Shown: piece after piece, positions 22,162 to 29,114 of the stretch
Numbering within the stretch: the stretch's first letter is position 1
Layout of the letters: every line of letters starts with the position of its first letter
Virus record (IMG/VR): IMGVR_UViG_3300022929_000120
Span: 1 to 31,140 of that record
Source: a virus
DNA: 31,140 bases
Direction: 5' to 3' (one strand)
Notes under the pieces: model-generated
Databases searched by the model: none
The model's input: only the letters and a program-made list of their open reading frames with translations
What the model was told of the DNA's origin: nothing
Position numbers and translations under genes: made by a program

Positions 22162-22602
22162 TTACTTTTTCTCCTTAACCTCCAGTTTTTCACCTTTTGG
22201 ATCAGGCTCTTTTTCATCATCTTTTGATAAAAGTTTCTTTTCAGCAGCTTCAGAGTCTTCCTTGCTAATCTTGCCATCCTTCTTCATCTTGTCGAGAATA
22301 GCTTTCTGAATCGCGGGTGGAAGTTTCTTTTGTTTATCAGTAAGTCCTCCCTCGCCATATTCATTCATCATAGCTCTCATCTTATCATACTGAACGCCAC
22401 AAGCTGCATAAGTATGCTTTTTGTCCATTCCTTCTGTATTAACAAGAGCTTTATCATCGGATGCGCACATGCTCATATAAGATTTATATAAACCTGCTTC
22501 TGACCCACTATACTTGCTAGCGATTGATACTTCCGCTTCCCCATTGTTAAAACTAACAGTTTTCTCAAGAGGCACTTCAATGTCTTCTGGATTAATTTTC
22601 AT
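22162..22602 (-). CDS. Unknown head-operon protein (146 aa)
   Basis: No family recognised. The protein sits between portal and protease-scaffold, and overlaps the portal stop by 11 nt. Residues 1-30 look like strands (VPLEKTVSFNNGEAEVSIAS). A middle section contains two cysteines (SMCASDDKAL, YAACGVQYDK). The C-terminal half is charged helix (LPPAIQKAILDKMKKDGKIS) with a long Lys/Glu tail (KDDEKEPDPKGEKLEVKEKK). The location suggests a minor head or portal-associated protein, possibly an internal core component removed by the protease. The gene ends 1 nt before the protease-scaffold ATG, so translation is likely coupled. Confidence 0.55.
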   Translation of the reverse strand: MKINPEDIEVPLEKTVSFNNGEAEVSIASKYSGSEAGLYKSYMSMCASDDKALVNTEGMDKKHTYAACGVQYDKMRAMMNEYGEGGLTDKQKKLPPAIQKAILDKMKKDGKISKEDSEAAEKKLLSKDDEKEPDPKGEKLEVKEKK

Positions 22603-24571
22603 GACTGTGATATAAAATTGCTGACGGGTAAACTTCTAAGTTATGCTTATTAGCTACACTTAAAACTTCATTCATAACATTTAATTCTTCAATAAGTTCG
22701 AAATTATCAATACAAGCTTCAAGGGTTTGATTCCATTCATTTTGCTTTGAGGCGCAAATAATCGACTCACAAAGCTTGTTAACCATCTCCTCTTGCTGTT
22801 CATTAAGGTCTCCACCGAACTTCTCCTCGGCTCTTTCTCTAGCTAAAGAATTAAATGCTTCCACGGCATAAATAGTACCTTGGATGTTTTGTCTAGTAAG
22901 TTTTTCGTTATCGACTGTTGTTGTCCCGTTTGGTCTTCCCGCAGATTTTGGAGTATCTACAGTTTGGGGTTCGTCGGAACCTTCACCCATCTGAGGCTCA
23001 ATCATTGGAATACCGCCAACAATTGGATTATAAAAGCCTTCTTTCCTTTGTTCTATAAAGGCTGTTTGTGCGGGAGCGATATCTTCCGCATTTGGGAACT
23101 TTCCATTATGGAACATCTCCATACCTTGTTGTGGGGTAAGGATACCAAGCTCCATGAGGCGAGTAGACACACGCATAAGCTGGGTCTCATCGCGCATGTC
23201 GATATCCTTCATAGTAGCGGTAGGATACGACTTAAACCCTAAGCTATTAGCTATCCTCTTAATCTCCCTCTGTAAGAAATCATTTAAGAAACAACTCCTA
23301 GCTTCTTTAAGGCGGTCAATGAATATTTGGGCTTTAACTTGTGTTGAATTATATTTTTCATCTCCAACAACAATATTTTGAAGACCTTGTTTAATATCTT
23401 CATTTAAAATCTGATATTTAGCTGGCCCAAGAACTTTGTTTAGATCTGGGATAACAAAATCTGCTTTAGTGGTATAATCAGAAACTAATACCCGACCAAC
23501 ACTCTCATTCTTGAAGAGACTCTGCATGGCATTGATATTGTTGGCGTTAATACCGCCTTTTTCTGGCTCAGCTCCCATAGTGATGAGAAGAATAACATTC
23601 TCAACAGTTCGGGTAATGGCTTGATCCATTTTCTTTAATTCAAGCTTAGCATTGATATCTTCTAATACTGGATATCCAAATGGCACTGCAAATGGCTCAT
23701 AATCTTGTTTCTTATAAAACGAAAAGCTAAGACGCTTGGGGTCTAACTCAATCTTGATACCATCTGTGTAATATGATCCATCTTTAATCAACTTCTTCAT
23801 CTCAGGGTCAAGAGAATCATAAATTAATTTATCTTCCTCTGTAGCTGGATTCTGTAAGCGGGAAAGCTCATATTCAGATAAAACTTTCTCATATGCCCCA
23901 ACATTAAATGTCGTAGCCCTCTTAGATACAATATCGAAAGGATTTAGTAATACATACTTAACTGGAATCTTATTAGCTGAAGGGTTAATGGCTCCAACTT
24001 GATTCATAAGTCGGGCATAATCCTCAACCTCAAACTCCCCATCAAACCTATAGATAAAGATGTTACCACTACGGTAATACTCACGGAAGTATTGATCTTT
24101 AAGGTTTTGAAGGTTAATACGCTTGAAGAACTGATTAAAGAACTCCCGACTCTTTTTTGTGCCACCCTCTAAGTAAATCTCTGTGTTTGCGAACTCAGAC
24201 ATAACGTCCACAGCGTTTCTGAACACTGATACGTTAGCGTAAGCTTTTTGACATAACTCAATACCCTCACGAACATTTACGCCATCAGCAGCATACTCAT
24301 AAGGGAGCATACCCTTACGAATACTAGAAAACCTATCAATAGTATTCCTTAAGGCTGCGGAGTTGACTCTAGCTGAACCTGAAGTTCCCGCAGTATTGAC
24401 TCTAGCTGTAGAAACCTTTTTATACGAAGCGTCAGAGGTGTAAAATGATTCGCCTAGTAATTCAGGCACATATTCTTCTTGAGAAGCTTGGCTCATAGCT
24501 AAATCTCCCAAGTTGTTGTTCTTGTTGAACTTATTCCAATAATCTGATCGTTTCGTATACTTCCTAGCCAT
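22592..24571 (-). CDS. Portal protein
   Basis: Forms the dodecameric ring at one vertex through which DNA enters and leaves. At 659 aa it has the portal layout. The N-terminal region includes ELCQKAYANVSVFRNAVDVM ('a...n..v...v...'). The clip and stem region follows, with FREYYRSGNIFIYRFDGEFE and the conserved beta segment NKIPVKYVLLNPFDIV. Then come the helical stem (ELKKMDQAITRTVENVILLI), a crown part with IKQGLQNIVVGDEKYNSTQV, and the helical wing (RLKEARSCFLNDFLQREIKR). It follows the large terminase by 45 nt, a gap containing the tgtgtaatataata element. The N-terminus carries a short 11-residue repeat (TARVNTAG, SARVNSAA). The family call is firm from context and motif order. Confidence 0.85.
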   Translation of the reverse strand: MARKYTKRSDYWNKFNKNNNLGDLAMSQASQEEYVPELLGESFYTSDASYKKVSTARVNTAGTSGSARVNSAALRNTIDRFSSIRKGMLPYEYAADGVNVREGIELCQKAYANVSVFRNAVDVMSEFANTEIYLEGGTKKSREFFNQFFKRINLQNLKDQYFREYYRSGNIFIYRFDGEFEVEDYARLMNQVGAINPSANKIPVKYVLLNPFDIVSKRATTFNVGAYEKVLSEYELSRLQNPATEEDKLIYDSLDPEMKKLIKDGSYYTDGIKIELDPKRLSFSFYKKQDYEPFAVPFGYPVLEDINAKLELKKMDQAITRTVENVILLITMGAEPEKGGINANNINAMQSLFKNESVGRVLVSDYTTKADFVIPDLNKVLGPAKYQILNEDIKQGLQNIVVGDEKYNSTQVKAQIFIDRLKEARSCFLNDFLQREIKRIANSLGFKSYPTATMKDIDMRDETQLMRVSTRLMELGILTPQQGMEMFHNGKFPNAEDIAPAQTAFIEQRKEGFYNPIVGGIPMIEPQMGEGSDEPQTVDTPKSAGRPNGTTTVDNEKLTRQNIQGTIYAVEAFNSLARERAEEKFGGDLNEQQEEMVNKLCESIICASKQNEWNQTLEACIDNFELIEELNVMNEVLSVANKHNLEVYPSAILYHSHEN

Positions 24572-24616: not shown

Positions 24617-26482
24617 TTAAGAAATAAACATTGGGGTGAATGTTTCTGTTATATCAGAGCCTTTATCGTCTAACATATCAAAATATACATTCATACCCCA
24701 GTTACCTAAGACTAAGGCTGAATAGGAGTCTTTTCGGGCTTTATCAGCGCCTCGCTGTTTGCGAAGGTTAGGAGGTAAATCAAAACTTTGTGTTCCTTGA
24801 GGCGAAGTGGTAACTTGCACTAAGGCGCATTGAACTTTTATAAGATCCATCATATCTCTTTGATGCTCTACAAAGTCAATCATTTTTGCGGCTTTGTTTT
24901 TTTCTTCAGCATCTTGATTTCTCAAAAACTTTATTTTCTCAATAGGGATGTTAGCCTTTCTTTGCATGTTGTAGTTGTCATCCATAGCGGACCCAGCAAA
25001 GTATAACCTTTTATGATCAAAAGCGGCTTGCAAGCTTTCATTAGCAAAACGAATCCATGTGGAGCTAGGCTTTCTTAAAAACACAAATTTTCTAGATTTT
25101 TTATCTATTGACCGCTTCAACTGTCTAATACCTTTAGGATAATCTTTAGGGTTATCTAAATCAGCCTCCACTGTATCTATTTTTAAATTTAATTTTTTAA
25201 ATATACCGCTTTCCTTACAAGCGCTCAAAAATTGCACACCTCCGTTGTAGTCACCCACCACCATCTCAATATTGAAGTGAGTCAACAGATAAGCCATATA
25301 TCGAATGTGTGTTTGCAGGTTAGACCCAGAAACAGCGTAGCTATGCACTACAACGCCTTTTCGCGTCTCTGGGTGCATCTTTATCAAAAGTATAGCAAAA
25401 TCGTCTGAGCTTTCACTCTCGGACCAAGAAGGGTCAAATGCGAGGATATATTTGGAGCTGGGATCACCAACAACCTCAACACACTGCCCTTCACCATCAG
25501 GAAGAGTACATGCAGCCATTTTACTAACTTTGAAGTATCCAGAACTATCATCAGTGAATACAGCGCCAAACTCTCGATCAAACTGAGATTGACTCATTGT
25601 TGATTTGGATTGGTTAATCAAATTTTGATCATATAGCTGTGGAGGCGCACAATCATAACTAAAATGCATAATAACCCTATGAGCGCCATCTTGTTTATTC
25701 TCATTGATGATTAAAGATTCATATTGTTGATAAAGCTTAAACAAATACTCAAACTTGTAGGATGCGGATGATAAACCAATAATTTTGTTGTTTGGCCATT
25801 TAGTCCTTTCGTCTTCGGTCATTTCCCCTTCCGCGATCATCTGAGTTTCTAGATCATAGATCTCTTGCCTCTCTGTAGGGTTCTCAACAACAGAAAGGAA
25901 CGGCATAATAACCTCATTGAAGATTTTCTCAGGCATAAGGAGAAGCTCGTCAATAATCATACGTTGGAAACGGAAACCACGAAGTTTCTCACCATCACCA
26001 AGAGGCAAAGCAAGAATTTTACTTCTGCCTATCTCCATAACCCATTCATCATTCATTTTAGATGTTCTGGTTATGCATTGAGATAAGAACTCAGCTTTGG
26101 GGCTTTTAGCGATATCCTCAATCTTTTTAAAGATCATCTTGGACTGACGGAACGATTTAGATATGATTCCAATCTGCACACCTTGATTCATTATAGCATC
26201 TAGGATGGCAAACACAGCAGTAGAGAATGATTTACTCATACCTCGACTCCATATACCCAAAAAGTAATCCGTCTCCATCATTGACTTAATAGCCATATGC
26301 TGAAACGGAAACAACTTAACACCTGTGAATAACTCACAAGTAAAAGATGGATTATCTCTTAAGAATTTATAAAGTAAAAGCCTAGCTTCTCCTTCTTCGA
26401 TGTAACCTTCTCTGGAAAGTACTTCTTGGTTTACTTCTTTGAACTTCTTGTACAGGTTCTGGTTGCCTTCTATCCAAGCCAT
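24617..26482 (-). CDS. terL: Terminase large subunit
   Basis: Pumps DNA into the prohead with an N-terminal ATPase and cuts it with a C-terminal RNase H-like nuclease. In the 621-aa protein the deviant Walker A is SRGMSKSF (residues 79-86) after LGIW, and Walker B is RMIIDEL with D178-E179. The coupling motif is IIGLSSAS (about 234-241). The nuclease metal ligands are probably D350 (ILAFDPSW), D411 (MVVGDYNGG) and D585 (ARKDSYSALV). All motifs are intact and in order, so the enzyme should be active. The start MAWIEGNQ lies inside the end of the ERCC4-type nuclease gene, with a 101-nt overlap, and follows a run of seven A. Confidence 0.93.
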   Translation of the reverse strand: MAWIEGNQNLYKKFKEVNQEVLSREGYIEEGEARLLLYKFLRDNPSFTCELFTGVKLFPFQHMAIKSMMETDYFLGIWSRGMSKSFSTAVFAILDAIMNQGVQIGIISKSFRQSKMIFKKIEDIAKSPKAEFLSQCITRTSKMNDEWVMEIGRSKILALPLGDGEKLRGFRFQRMIIDELLLMPEKIFNEVIMPFLSVVENPTERQEIYDLETQMIAEGEMTEDERTKWPNNKIIGLSSASYKFEYLFKLYQQYESLIINENKQDGAHRVIMHFSYDCAPPQLYDQNLINQSKSTMSQSQFDREFGAVFTDDSSGYFKVSKMAACTLPDGEGQCVEVVGDPSSKYILAFDPSWSESESSDDFAILLIKMHPETRKGVVVHSYAVSGSNLQTHIRYMAYLLTHFNIEMVVGDYNGGVQFLSACKESGIFKKLNLKIDTVEADLDNPKDYPKGIRQLKRSIDKKSRKFVFLRKPSSTWIRFANESLQAAFDHKRLYFAGSAMDDNYNMQRKANIPIEKIKFLRNQDAEEKNKAAKMIDFVEHQRDMMDLIKVQCALVQVTTSPQGTQSFDLPPNLRKQRGADKARKDSYSALVLGNWGMNVYFDMLDDKGSDITETFTPMFIS

Positions 26483-27398
26483 TTTTTTCTAATTCTTTTT
26501 CCCAAAAATATTGCAAGTCAACATTCCATAGCTTCTTGCCACAGCAGAGGATCTTGGGTATTAACGCCTCACTGTCTTTTCTCGATCCACTAAACACAAA
26601 TTGACAACAATCACTAAACTGTGCTTCAATAGATCTCATTCTGCTAAATACAAAACCCATATTGAATTTCTTATAAGCAGCACTATTTGTTTTATAAATT
26701 TTATTATAATCAGCCTCAACAACAATAAATAAAAAACACCCCAAACTCTGGCATCTTTCTATCTCCCGAATAAACCTAGCATAACCATTAGTAACAGTAG
26801 CAGCAAAATCTTGGAATGACTTTCTTTCTGCATGAGTATGAGTATAGTTTTTTGGGGGTAGTGTATAATCACCAAAGTCTAATTTAAAAACATAAGGATT
26901 TTTAAAATTTAAAGGCTTGTTCTCTCTCGTGTCTATCCAAACCTCTTGATCACTGTAATCTTCAAAAAATTCTTTACATATATTATCTCCATAAGCAGGA
27001 GTTACCCCTATTTGGCCACAGAATGCGTTGTAACCGCCGAACAGCTTTTTTATGACATCTAGCGTGGGCCAATCGCCTGTCTTCAGGTAGAGGCTTGATG
27101 GAGCGTGTTTAAGGTCTTTCTTTTTAAGCCTTTTTTTGAATTTCTCCAAAATATATTTTTTCACCTCATCTTTGGGCGCTTTCTCAAACCAGAGGTTCAT
27201 GTTTCTGGTTGTGTTGAAATCTCTAGAGAAGTACTGGCTTGCGTTTTTGAACTCGATAGGCTTTTCAGTCAGCTTATCGAAACGTGGATAGTTTTTGACA
27301 TAGTAATCACCAAGCAGCATATCGTGCTTCTTGATATGCATATGCAGACCACGTTGCGTATCAAACGCCTTGTCACACTCTTTACATTCAAATTGCAT
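26382..27398 (-). CDS. C2H2 zinc-finger ERCC4/XPF-type nuclease
   Basis: A predicted structure-specific endonuclease. The 338-aa protein has three parts. Residues 3-25 form a classical C2H2 finger (C5, C8, H21, H25). About 98-132 matches the short repeat associated with homing endonucleases (PSSLYLKTGDWPTLDVIKKL followed by FGGYNAFCGQIG). Residues 152-290 are an ERCC4 nuclease: IDTREN (D156), then G176-D177, 13 residues, E191-R192-K193, three residues, D197. This fits the catalytic GDXnERKX3D pattern, with FLFIVVEAD as the following core strand. It lies between the small-terminase candidate (11-nt overlap) and the large terminase (101-nt overlap), so a role at packaging or in resolving DNA branches is likely. 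The last 34 residues lie in the overlap and are very Arg/Gln-rich. Confidence 0.8.
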   Translation of the reverse strand: MQFECKECDKAFDTQRGLHMHIKKHDMLLGDYYVKNYPRFDKLTEKPIEFKNASQYFSRDFNTTRNMNLWFEKAPKDEVKKYILEKFKKRLKKKDLKHAPSSLYLKTGDWPTLDVIKKLFGGYNAFCGQIGVTPAYGDNICKEFFEDYSDQEVWIDTRENKPLNFKNPYVFKLDFGDYTLPPKNYTHTHAERKSFQDFAATVTNGYARFIREIERCQSLGCFLFIVVEADYNKIYKTNSAAYKKFNMGFVFSRMRSIEAQFSDCCQFVFSGSRKDSEALIPKILCCGKKLWNVDLQYFWEKELEKNGLDRRQPEPVQEVQRSKPRSTFQRRLHRRRRS

Positions 27399-28437
27399 CG
27401 TCTTTACTAATACCTAAAATTCGCGCTTTCCATTCAGCCATACCCTCCATACGTTCAGCCTCTTCTTTAATTAGCTTTTTTTGCATTTCTGCCATGCGAA
27501 CCATGTTTTTCCGCTCCTCCTCTTCTTGAAACATCTGAACGATAGCCAAAAATGACGCACTATCTTTTTGATTCTTCTTCATGCGCTCAGCACGGTCACC
27601 TTGTAGCTTTTTCGTCAAATTCTCAATACGTGTTTCACATTGATGATATTCTTGTGATTTTGCTTTTATGATCTCAGCAAGACGTACGGTCATTTCGGTC
27701 TGGTCATCAGCCACGTCAAACATATCATTAAGTTTGTTAAGGTGAGCAGAAACAACTTCCAAGTTAATGACCTCTTTACATACGTTAAGGTATAGATTCA
27801 GCTCGTCAGCGGTTAAATCGGGCTTGTCCCAACTCAAACGAATAAATTCTTGTTCGAACAACTCTCTGTCTGGCCTGTTAAGATAATTATTGATGATTTT
27901 TAAAAATCTACTATTGGAAAGATTGATTTGAAGCTTTTCTACACAGATTTGCTTTTGTCTGTTAAGCTTGTTTTCTTCTAAGCCTAATCCTGTTGCATCA
28001 TTGATTTTCTTTAACACTCGACTCGGGCTTTTAGGCGGGACGTAGTCGCTAACGGCTGCGGAATCTTGAGACGGTACGAAATCTGGATTGATCTCGTTAA
28101 TGTGCGCCAAAACCGTTCTTTGCTCATTGCTTAAGGGTTTTACTTGTTTTTGGGGGAATATAAGCTTGGCAATCTCCAAAGACGACAATCCTTCTTGGGC
28201 TTGTTGTATAATAAAGTCTTTCTGAGAATCGTTTAATTCGATTTTGTCCTGTGGTTTGCGGCGGGTTGTTTTATAATCAATATTATTCTCTAATAAGTAT
28301 TTACGCACAGCCCGACCCTCTTTCGTCCGCCCGTCCAAATCATCATCCCTAAAACATTTTTGGGTAAGCTCATTTAAATTAGAGACTTTCGCGGCATTGG
28401 CTTTTATATAATCTTTTTGCTCTTGTGTTAATTCCAT
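27388..28437 (-). CDS. Duplicated-domain DNA-binding-type protein; small terminase candidate
   Basis: Possibly the small terminase subunit, which recognises DNA for packaging; this is inferred from place and build, not from a family match. Residues 2-55 and 67-120 are an ungapped internal duplication. ELTQEQKDYIKANAAKVSNL aligns with ELNDSQKDFIIQQAQEGLSS, each 54 residues, and looks like a helix-turn-helix unit. A Pro/Ser linker follows, then helices (about 155-270) and a long charged coiled coil (about 270-335) that could drive ring assembly. It is directly upstream of the ERCC4-type nuclease and the large terminase. The start is ATG 28437, preceded by GGAGGAG; a GTG one codon earlier is also open. 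The stop of the sigma-like gene overlaps as TGATG. Confidence 0.55.
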   Translation of the reverse strand: MELTQEQKDYIKANAAKVSNLNELTQKCFRDDDLDGRTKEGRAVRKYLLENNIDYKTTRRKPQDKIELNDSQKDFIIQQAQEGLSSLEIAKLIFPQKQVKPLSNEQRTVLAHINEINPDFVPSQDSAAVSDYVPPKSPSRVLKKINDATGLGLEENKLNRQKQICVEKLQINLSNSRFLKIINNYLNRPDRELFEQEFIRLSWDKPDLTADELNLYLNVCKEVINLEVVSAHLNKLNDMFDVADDQTEMTVRLAEIIKAKSQEYHQCETRIENLTKKLQGDRAERMKKNQKDSASFLAIVQMFQEEEERKNMVRMAEMQKKLIKEEAERMEGMAEWKARILGISKDDAI

Positions 28438-29114
28438 CACTCCTCCTTATCTTGTTTTAAAATTTTTATTGCAATCTTTTGAAATTTACATTTGAGATTC
28501 TTTACCTGTCTGTAGCCAATCTTACGATTAGTATCAGACAATTTATACCCCATATACTTAGCAACATCTTCTTCCGAACAATCTTCAAAATATAACATAT
28601 AATATGCCTCATAAAGCTTTTCACCAAGTTTTTTGCGCATTTTATCATTAAGCTTATCTATGTCAGCATCATAATCAAAATATGAACTGCATTTAACATT
28701 CACCACATTCTCATTATCATCCAAACTAGATGCTGTTTTCAATTCTAGCCCAAATTTTTTCTTCTTGGCCCATTTTGCATAATCTTTGCACGAAACATCT
28801 TGATTACCACTCAATGTTTTAGCACATAACTCATCTCTTGCATAAATACATGTCGAACAAGGCTTTATATAAGAACCATAGTGATTTCTTATAAGATTCC
28901 ACATGCGATTCGTGATTACACGACTAAGCCATGGCTCCAGTGGGCGCGACTGATCCCACATATGCCACTTCTGGGCTATATGAGATTTTACTACCTGCTC
29001 AACATCCTCAAAGTCAAACCATTTTATAGCGTCTAAACGCCATCTTGACTTTTGCTTCTTAACTGCACGATCTATGAGGTCTTGATAGTCTTCATATCTT
29101 TTCTTTTTTGACAT
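28437..29114 (-). CDS. Sigma-70-like factor with cysteine insert
   Basis: Probably a phage-specific transcription initiation factor. In the 225-aa protein, residues 33-80 match sigma region 2: FDFEDVEQVVKSHIAQKWHM ('dfeDl.Qev.l') and LEPWLSRVITNRMWNLIRNH ('f..wl..ia.n...n..R'). Residues 165-215 look like region 4, with FEDCSEEDVAKYMGYKLSDT as the helix-turn-helix. Between them is an unusual insert with C86-x2-C89, C97 and C109, which could bind zinc. It overlaps the zinc ribbon gene upstream (TAATG) and the small-terminase candidate downstream, so it is co-transcribed with packaging genes. It may read the recurring GTGTAATAT elements. It could alternatively be an RNA polymerase-binding factor without promoter specificity. 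Confidence 0.7.
   Translation of the reverse strand: MSKKKRYEDYQDLIDRAVKKQKSRWRLDAIKWFDFEDVEQVVKSHIAQKWHMWDQSRPLEPWLSRVITNRMWNLIRNHYGSYIKPCSTCIYARDELCAKTLSGNQDVSCKDYAKWAKKKKFGLELKTASSLDDNENVVNVKCSSYFDYDADIDKLNDKMRKKLGEKLYEAYYMLYFEDCSEEDVAKYMGYKLSDTNRKIGYRQVKNLKCKFQKIAIKILKQDKEE

What the first reader, a model, noticed from the sequence alone, without database searches (positions are those of the whole stretch)
26382..27398. XPF/ERCC4-type nuclease with C2H2 finger beside the large terminase
The ERCC4 pattern (GD, 13 residues, ERK, 3 residues, D) is unusually clear. It is joined to a classic C2H2 finger and a homing-endonuclease-associated repeat. Many phages place an HNH nuclease next to terminase to help packaging; here an XPF-type enzyme takes that position, hinting at a different way to cut branched or concatemeric DNA.
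Basis: partly seen in the sequence, partly recalled or inferred. Interest (0 to 1): 0.65.

Follow-up and report, generated by a model that had tools for sequence, protein, structure and literature searches.

The report
XPF-type nuclease in phage packaging operon
A large, uncultured group of aquatic tailed phages carries, next to the gene for its DNA-packaging motor, a zinc-finger enzyme related to the branch-cutting DNA-repair nuclease XPF, which probably trims branched DNA so that the genome can be packed.

Summary
The minus-strand ORF 26382-27398 (338 aa) encodes an N-terminal C2H2 finger, a helical linker domain and an ERCC4 (XPF-type) nuclease domain. It lies between a conserved 350-aa gene (gA, possible small terminase) and terL, overlapping both. 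Pfam, PHROGs and an AlphaFold model (XPF/Hef/Mus81, Z 10-12) agree. Among 182 distinct homologues the catalytic residues are invariant apart from a conservative E/D swap, and selection is purifying (dN/dS about 0.09). The third claimed element, the homing-endonuclease-associated repeat, is only a sub-threshold resemblance. In every viral contig where it could be tested (TerL down to 52% identity) the gene lies between gA and terL; the few gaps hold one or two extra genes. This argues against a mobile homing gene. Known phage ERCC4 nucleases are solo domains in replication/recombination regions. Five other resolvase families were not found in seven long contigs. Best reading: a structure-selective nuclease that debranches concatemers during packaging, working like T4 endonuclease VII but unrelated to it. 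Packaging linkage is inferred from position and co-inheritance; cutting and TerL/portal binding are untested. New variant of a known kind: phage ERCC4 is known, this architecture and fixed location appear unreported.

The parts
26382..27398 (-). 338-aa C2H2 + helical + ERCC4 nuclease gene (nuc)
   Evidence: ORF; Pfam ERCC4 and PHROG 3490; AF2 model
27324..27392 (-). C2H2 zinc finger, residues 3-25 (C5, C8, H21, H25)
   Evidence: Pfam zf-C2H2 22.3 bits, sub-cut-off; ligands kept in 176-179 of 182 distinct homologues
26955..27317 (-). Helical N-terminal domain, residues 28-148; 96-134 weakly resembles HNH_repeat PF18780
   Evidence: Helices in AF2 models; no confident PDB fold; PF18780 only sub-threshold and only in relatives
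26529..26951 (-). ERCC4/XPF nuclease domain, residues 150-290
   Evidence: Z 12.1 to A. pernix XPF, 11.3 to Hef
26922..26933 (-). Catalytic D156-T-R-E159
   Evidence: D156, R158, E159 in 182/182
26868..26873 (-). Catalytic G176-D177
   Evidence: D177 in 182/182
26808..26828 (-). Catalytic E191-R-K193-xxx-D197
   Evidence: R192, K193, D197 in 182/182; position 191 D in 137 and E in 45
26382..26482 (-). Arg-rich C-terminal tail, shared with the start of terL
   Evidence: Disordered in model; pN/pS 1.45, absent in many relatives: constrained only by the terL frame
24617..26482 (-). Large terminase terL, 621 aa
   Evidence: Terminase_6N and PHROG terL; nuclease-domain Asp residues D350 and D411 kept in distant L279
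27388..28440 (-). Conserved 350-aa protein gA; small-terminase candidate by position only
   Evidence: No family match; upstream of nuc in nearly all relatives
28437..29114 (-). Sigma-factor-like protein in the same gene string
   Evidence: Sigma70_r2 E 5e-4, sub-cut-off
22592..24571 (-). Portal protein candidate
   Evidence: phrog_16240 portal E 7e-4; position after terL in relatives

Best explanation
A catalytically intact, metal-dependent, structure-selective endonuclease made with the late packaging genes. Its ERCC4 domain nicks or cuts branched DNA (flaps, Y-forms, four-way junctions) in the replication concatemer, and its N-terminal C2H2 finger plus helical domain bind DNA and perhaps the packaging complex. 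It clears branches that would stall the TerL motor: the job of T4 endonuclease VII, done by an unrelated fold. Shown: fold (predicted), active-site conservation, purifying selection, fixed place in the packaging string. Inferred: branch specificity (from XPF/Hef/Mus81), coupling to TerL/portal (from position and co-inheritance), DNA binding by the finger.
For: ERCC4 by sequence and by predicted fold. Catalytic residues invariant apart from E/D at 191 in 182 distinct sequences and the motif in 56 of 56 of a further clade. dN/dS 0.09. gA directly upstream in 153 of 168 and terL directly downstream in 180 of 184 distinct loci; the gaps examined hold extra genes; in the more distant clade 76 of 76 testable loci keep nuc upstream of terL. 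Distances of nuc correlate with terL, gA and portal (Spearman 0.75-0.77). RuvC, RusA, endonuclease VII, RecU and T7 endonuclease I not found in the long contigs, with controls ringing, although the phage has a UvsX-like recombinase, so branched intermediates are expected. Other phages carry ERCC4 near Sak4-like, exonuclease and primase genes or between primase and ArpU, i.e. in recombination modules. T4 gp49 is portal-bound and rescues stalled branched packaging (PMC9958956; PMC3485210).
Against: No biochemistry. The HhH2 domain that helps XPF/Mus81 bind DNA was not seen. XPF-type enzymes work as dimers, often with a pseudo-nuclease partner; no partner identified. Contigs are not known to be complete, so an undetected resolvase is possible; lambda Rap was not tested. 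Gene neighbourhood does not prove physical coupling.
Confidence: 0.5

Rival explanations
1. A general recombination/replication resolvase or flap nuclease that happens to be transcribed with the packaging genes, without a direct packaging role.
For: All known phage ERCC4 genes examined lie in replication/recombination regions; other resolvase families not found.
Against: It is fixed between gA and terL in all testable members rather than in the UvsX/primase/helicase/polymerase region of the same genomes.
Confidence: 0.22
2. A packaging helper that makes or stimulates the site-specific cos/pac cut, as the HNH protein gp74 does for HK97; the zinc finger would supply sequence recognition.
For: Position next to terL; C2H2 finger at the N terminus in nearly all members; precedent of HK97 gp74 (PMC9410871).
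Against: XPF-type nucleases are known for structure, not sequence, selectivity (family knowledge). TerL keeps its own nuclease-domain Asp residues. A single finger gives little specificity.
Confidence: 0.17
3. A free-standing homing endonuclease, active or domesticated, with an ERCC4 catalytic core and homing-type N-terminal modules.
For: Weak HNH_repeat-like stretch in some relatives; C2H2 finger; the region does attract mobile elements: intein-like insertions in terL and an HNH-type ORF between gA and nuc in L145.
Against: Present in all testable loci, vertical-like distances, strong purifying selection, overlap with both neighbours; the real homing-type elements in the same region are sporadic.
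Confidence: 0.07

Closest known systems
Solo phage/halovirus ERCC4-type nucleases (PHROG 3490: HF2, HSTV-2, HRTV-27, phi105, A9Y)
   Same: Same ERCC4 domain type with the D(T/S)RE, GDY and ERK motifs; HRTV-27 aligns at 38% over 83 aa
   Different: About 145-180 aa, no C2H2 or helical domain, in replication/recombination regions rather than next to terL
Archaeal XPF and Hef nuclease domain; eukaryotic XPF, Mus81
   Same: Predicted fold (Z 10-12) and active-site motif
   Different: Here no helicase and no HhH2 domain seen; N-terminal C2H2 plus helical domain instead
T4 endonuclease VII (gp49)
   Same: Proposed role: debranching DNA for packaging
   Different: Unrelated family: PF02945 absent in G001, G003, G004 while T4 rings; gene 49 lies between nrdD and pin in T4
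HK97 gp74 HNH packaging helper
   Same: Phage nuclease tied to terminase
   Different: HNH fold, stimulates cos cleavage (PMC9410871)
ERCC4-domain EP364R family of large eukaryotic viruses
   Same: Viral ERCC4 domain with fold match
   Different: A different kind of virus; no C2H2 or terL context examined

Membership tests
ERCC4/XPF nuclease domain (PF02732) | Profile score above the curated cut-off | tested here: met
   29.9 vs 24 bits; all 11 members of A3 match
ERCC4/XPF nuclease domain (PF02732) | Active-site D..(E), GD, (E/D)RKxxxD | tested here: met
   182/182 apart from E/D swap at 191; 56/56 more
ERCC4/XPF nuclease domain (PF02732) | XPF-like nuclease fold | tested here: met
   AF2 pLDDT 88; Z 12.1, rmsd 2.7 A, 124 residues to 2bgw
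XPF/Mus81 endonucleases (full architecture) | C-terminal tandem HhH2 domain | tested here: inconclusive
   No HhH match in the Pfam scan and a disordered tail after residue 306; no dedicated search
XPF/Mus81 endonucleases (full architecture) | Structure-selective cleavage, dimeric | not testable with these tools
   Needs biochemistry
C2H2 zinc finger | CX2CX12HX3H with hydrophobic core | tested here: met
   Ligands in 176-179/182; Pfam sub-cut-off in the window; model overlays a C2H2 finger at 0.7 A over 26 columns, E 1.9
HNH_repeat, homing-endonuclease-associated (PF18780) | Profile score above cut-off 26 bits | tested here: not met
   None in the window; 13-15 bits in three relatives
T4 endonuclease VII | Endonuclease_7 domain | tested here: not met
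   No PF02945 match in this protein or in the long relatives, T4 control positive
HNH packaging nuclease (HK97 gp74-like) | HNH domain | tested here: not met
   No HNH match for this protein

The most novel reading that the evidence does not exclude
A dedicated packaging-coupled XPF-type debranching nuclease: a resolvase class beyond the five viral superfamilies listed in PMC3485210 (endonuclease VII, endonuclease I, Rap, RusA, RuvC-like), recruited to the terminase/portal by its C2H2-helical module and essential in a major uncultured phage group.
Probability: 0.4. Interest if true: 0.68.

Novelty: new variant of a known kind. Interest (0 to 1): 0.5.

Why it matters
Packaging motors stall at branches, and T4 endonuclease VII is the main studied example of a motor-associated resolvase. 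A second, unrelated enzyme in the packaging string of an abundant phage group would show convergent solutions and give a small, assayable phage XPF-type nuclease free of the eukaryotic partner complex. It would also put a testable function on a gene shared by hundreds of phage contigs that had no detectable whole-protein relative in the phage collection searched.

Tried and rejected
Whole-protein relatives in 50,697 phage records: none by tblastn with the window protein, the gA protein or the sigma-like protein. A hit to Escherichia phages phiWec188/190 was rejected: no finger or nuclease motif in the translated protein. Solved-structure sequence searches returned only zinc fingers and one unrelated beta-sandwich. 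The N-terminal domain alone gave no PDB match at E <= 0.001; the top hit was DsrC-like at E 0.34. Searching 395 genomes of the phylum of G015 (a Flavobacteriaceae MAG) found only phage-like contigs of that same MAG, so the host is not settled. Apparent absences of nuc in L265-L267 come from a proline-rich membrane-protein gene just before terL at a contig edge, not from shown loss. The apparent stop in L084 and the 'TGA' in L279 are normal ends of the gene, not recoding. The C-terminal tail is not evidence of function: it is constrained by the overlapping terL frame.

Full report
What is there. The finding lies on the minus strand. ORF 26382-27398 encodes 338 residues. Residues 3-25 form a C2H2 finger, 28-148 a helical domain, 150-290 an ERCC4 nuclease domain, and 307-338 a disordered tail. 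Pfam ERCC4 passes its cut-off (29.9 vs 24 bits) and PHROG 3490 'ERCC4-type nuclease' matches at 2e-9. The window is an unclassified 31,140-base virus record with tape-measure and minor tail proteins, so a long-tailed phage.

Fold. AlphaFold gives mean pLDDT 88. Foldseek's best PDB matches are XPF, Hef and Mus81; VIA-align gives Z 12.1 to Aeropyrum pernix XPF over 124 residues at 2.7 A, 11 to Hef, about 10 for human XPF and Mus81-Eme1 chains, and 9.6 for ERCC1. Viral matches are ERCC4 proteins of haloviruses and large eukaryotic viruses. The N-terminal domain alone has no confident known fold apart from the finger. The claimed homing-type repeat scores 13-15 bits against a cut-off of 26 in three relatives, at the same spot in the protein, and nothing in the window.

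Conservation. Across 182 distinct homologues D156, R158, E159, D177, R192, K193 and D197 never change; position 191 is D in 137 and E in 45; zinc ligands are kept in 176-179. A more distant clade, in whose first member TerL is 52% and nuc 38% identical to the window's, has the full motif in 56 of 56 and the C2H2 pattern in 53 of 56 distinct sequences. Median dN/dS is 0.09, against 0.03 for terL and about 0.04 for gA and portal. The last 32 residues show pN/pS 1.45 in the region shared with terL, and many relatives end earlier, so this tail is not under detectable selection as part of the nuclease.

Place. Order along the minus strand is PhoH, zinc ribbon, sigma-like, gA, nuc, terL, portal. It recurs in the relatives. 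Among 195 distinct nuc loci, gA is directly upstream in 153 of 168 testable and terL directly downstream in 180 of 184. The exceptions examined have another gene in the gap: a repetitive, beta-helix-like protein, an HNH-type ORF, a staphylococcal-nuclease-like ORF, or a subtilisin-like protease (these labels are read from sequence, not tested against libraries). In a scan anchored on distant TerL, 76 of 76 testable loci keep nuc upstream of terL. Three contigs that seemed to lack it end just inside another inserted gene. Pairwise distances of nuc correlate with terL, gA and portal at 0.75-0.77, somewhat below the 0.86-0.93 among those three; that is compatible with mostly vertical inheritance at a faster rate, though some exchange is not excluded.

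What it probably does. XPF-type nucleases cut branched DNA (family knowledge). Phages with recombination-dependent replication make branched concatemers; this group has a UvsX-like recombinase, DnaB-type helicase, primase and polymerase. RuvC, RusA, RecU and T7 endonuclease I were not found in seven contigs of 43-104 kb, nor endonuclease VII in the same seven; for endonuclease VII and endonuclease I the T4 and T7 positive controls rang. A family scan of 36 further proteins of one contig listed no resolvase among the 25 families shown, of 32. Contigs are not known to be complete, so this is suggestive only. In other phages ERCC4 sits in recombination modules: between primase and ArpU in A9Y and between primase and a transcriptional activator in phi105, and, in Verrucomicrobiota genomes, near Sak4-like, exonuclease, primase and SSB genes. 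T4 gp49 is the precedent for a motor-associated resolvase (PMC9958956), and the viral resolvase superfamilies listed in PMC3485210 do not include ERCC4. The best reading is therefore a debranching nuclease serving packaging. It is unlikely to replace TerL's own nuclease, whose D350 and D411 are kept in the distant relative. Branch preference and contact with TerL or portal are inferences.

Rivals. A recombination resolvase that merely shares the operon (about 0.22), a cos/pac-cutting helper like HK97 gp74 (0.17; PMC9410871), and a homing-type enzyme (0.07). Universality, purifying selection and overlap with both neighbours argue against homing; real mobile elements in the same region are sporadic (intein-like insertions in terL, one HNH-type ORF).

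Novelty. ERCC4 nucleases in phages are annotated already. The C2H2-helical-ERCC4 architecture, fixed in the packaging gene string of a large group, had no whole-protein match in 50,697 phage records, and the few papers found that name ERCC4, phage, terminase and nuclease together do not describe it as far as I read (one was opened). It is a new variant of a known kind.

Noticed in passing
L176:5930-8998; L144:1377-4571; also L146, L165, L170, L172, L173, L174: In-frame insertions of about 1.1-1.3 kb in terL at two nearby sites in the P-loop region (before S of SRG, and after GMSK), starting with Cys and ending in His-Asn: they look like inteins.
   Followed up: partly
L107:8500-9704: A 1.2-kb interruption of terL after residue 113 in a Verrucomicrobiales-binned contig; intein or intron not determined.
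   Followed up: no
L145:2608-3243: HNH-type ORF, apparently a free-standing homing endonuclease, inserted between gA and nuc in one phage.
   Followed up: partly
L241:3946-5001; L243:563-1615; L244:3893-4978: Subtilisin-like protease with a C-terminal membrane segment encoded between nuc and terL in a sub-clade.
   Followed up: no
L226:3404-4084; L258:3458-4075; L264:1700-2371; L241:2395-3021: Repetitive, beta-helix-like protein encoded between gA and nuc in another sub-clade.
   Followed up: no
L272:3720-4067: Small ORF resembling staphylococcal nuclease between gA and nuc in one contig.
   Followed up: no
window:28437-29114: Sigma-factor-like protein with a Cys-rich insert, conserved next to the packaging genes; no relative found in the phage collection.
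   Followed up: partly
window:27388-28440: Highly conserved 350-aa protein of unknown family, with a long charged, probably coiled-coil C-terminal half; candidate small terminase by position.
   Followed up: partly
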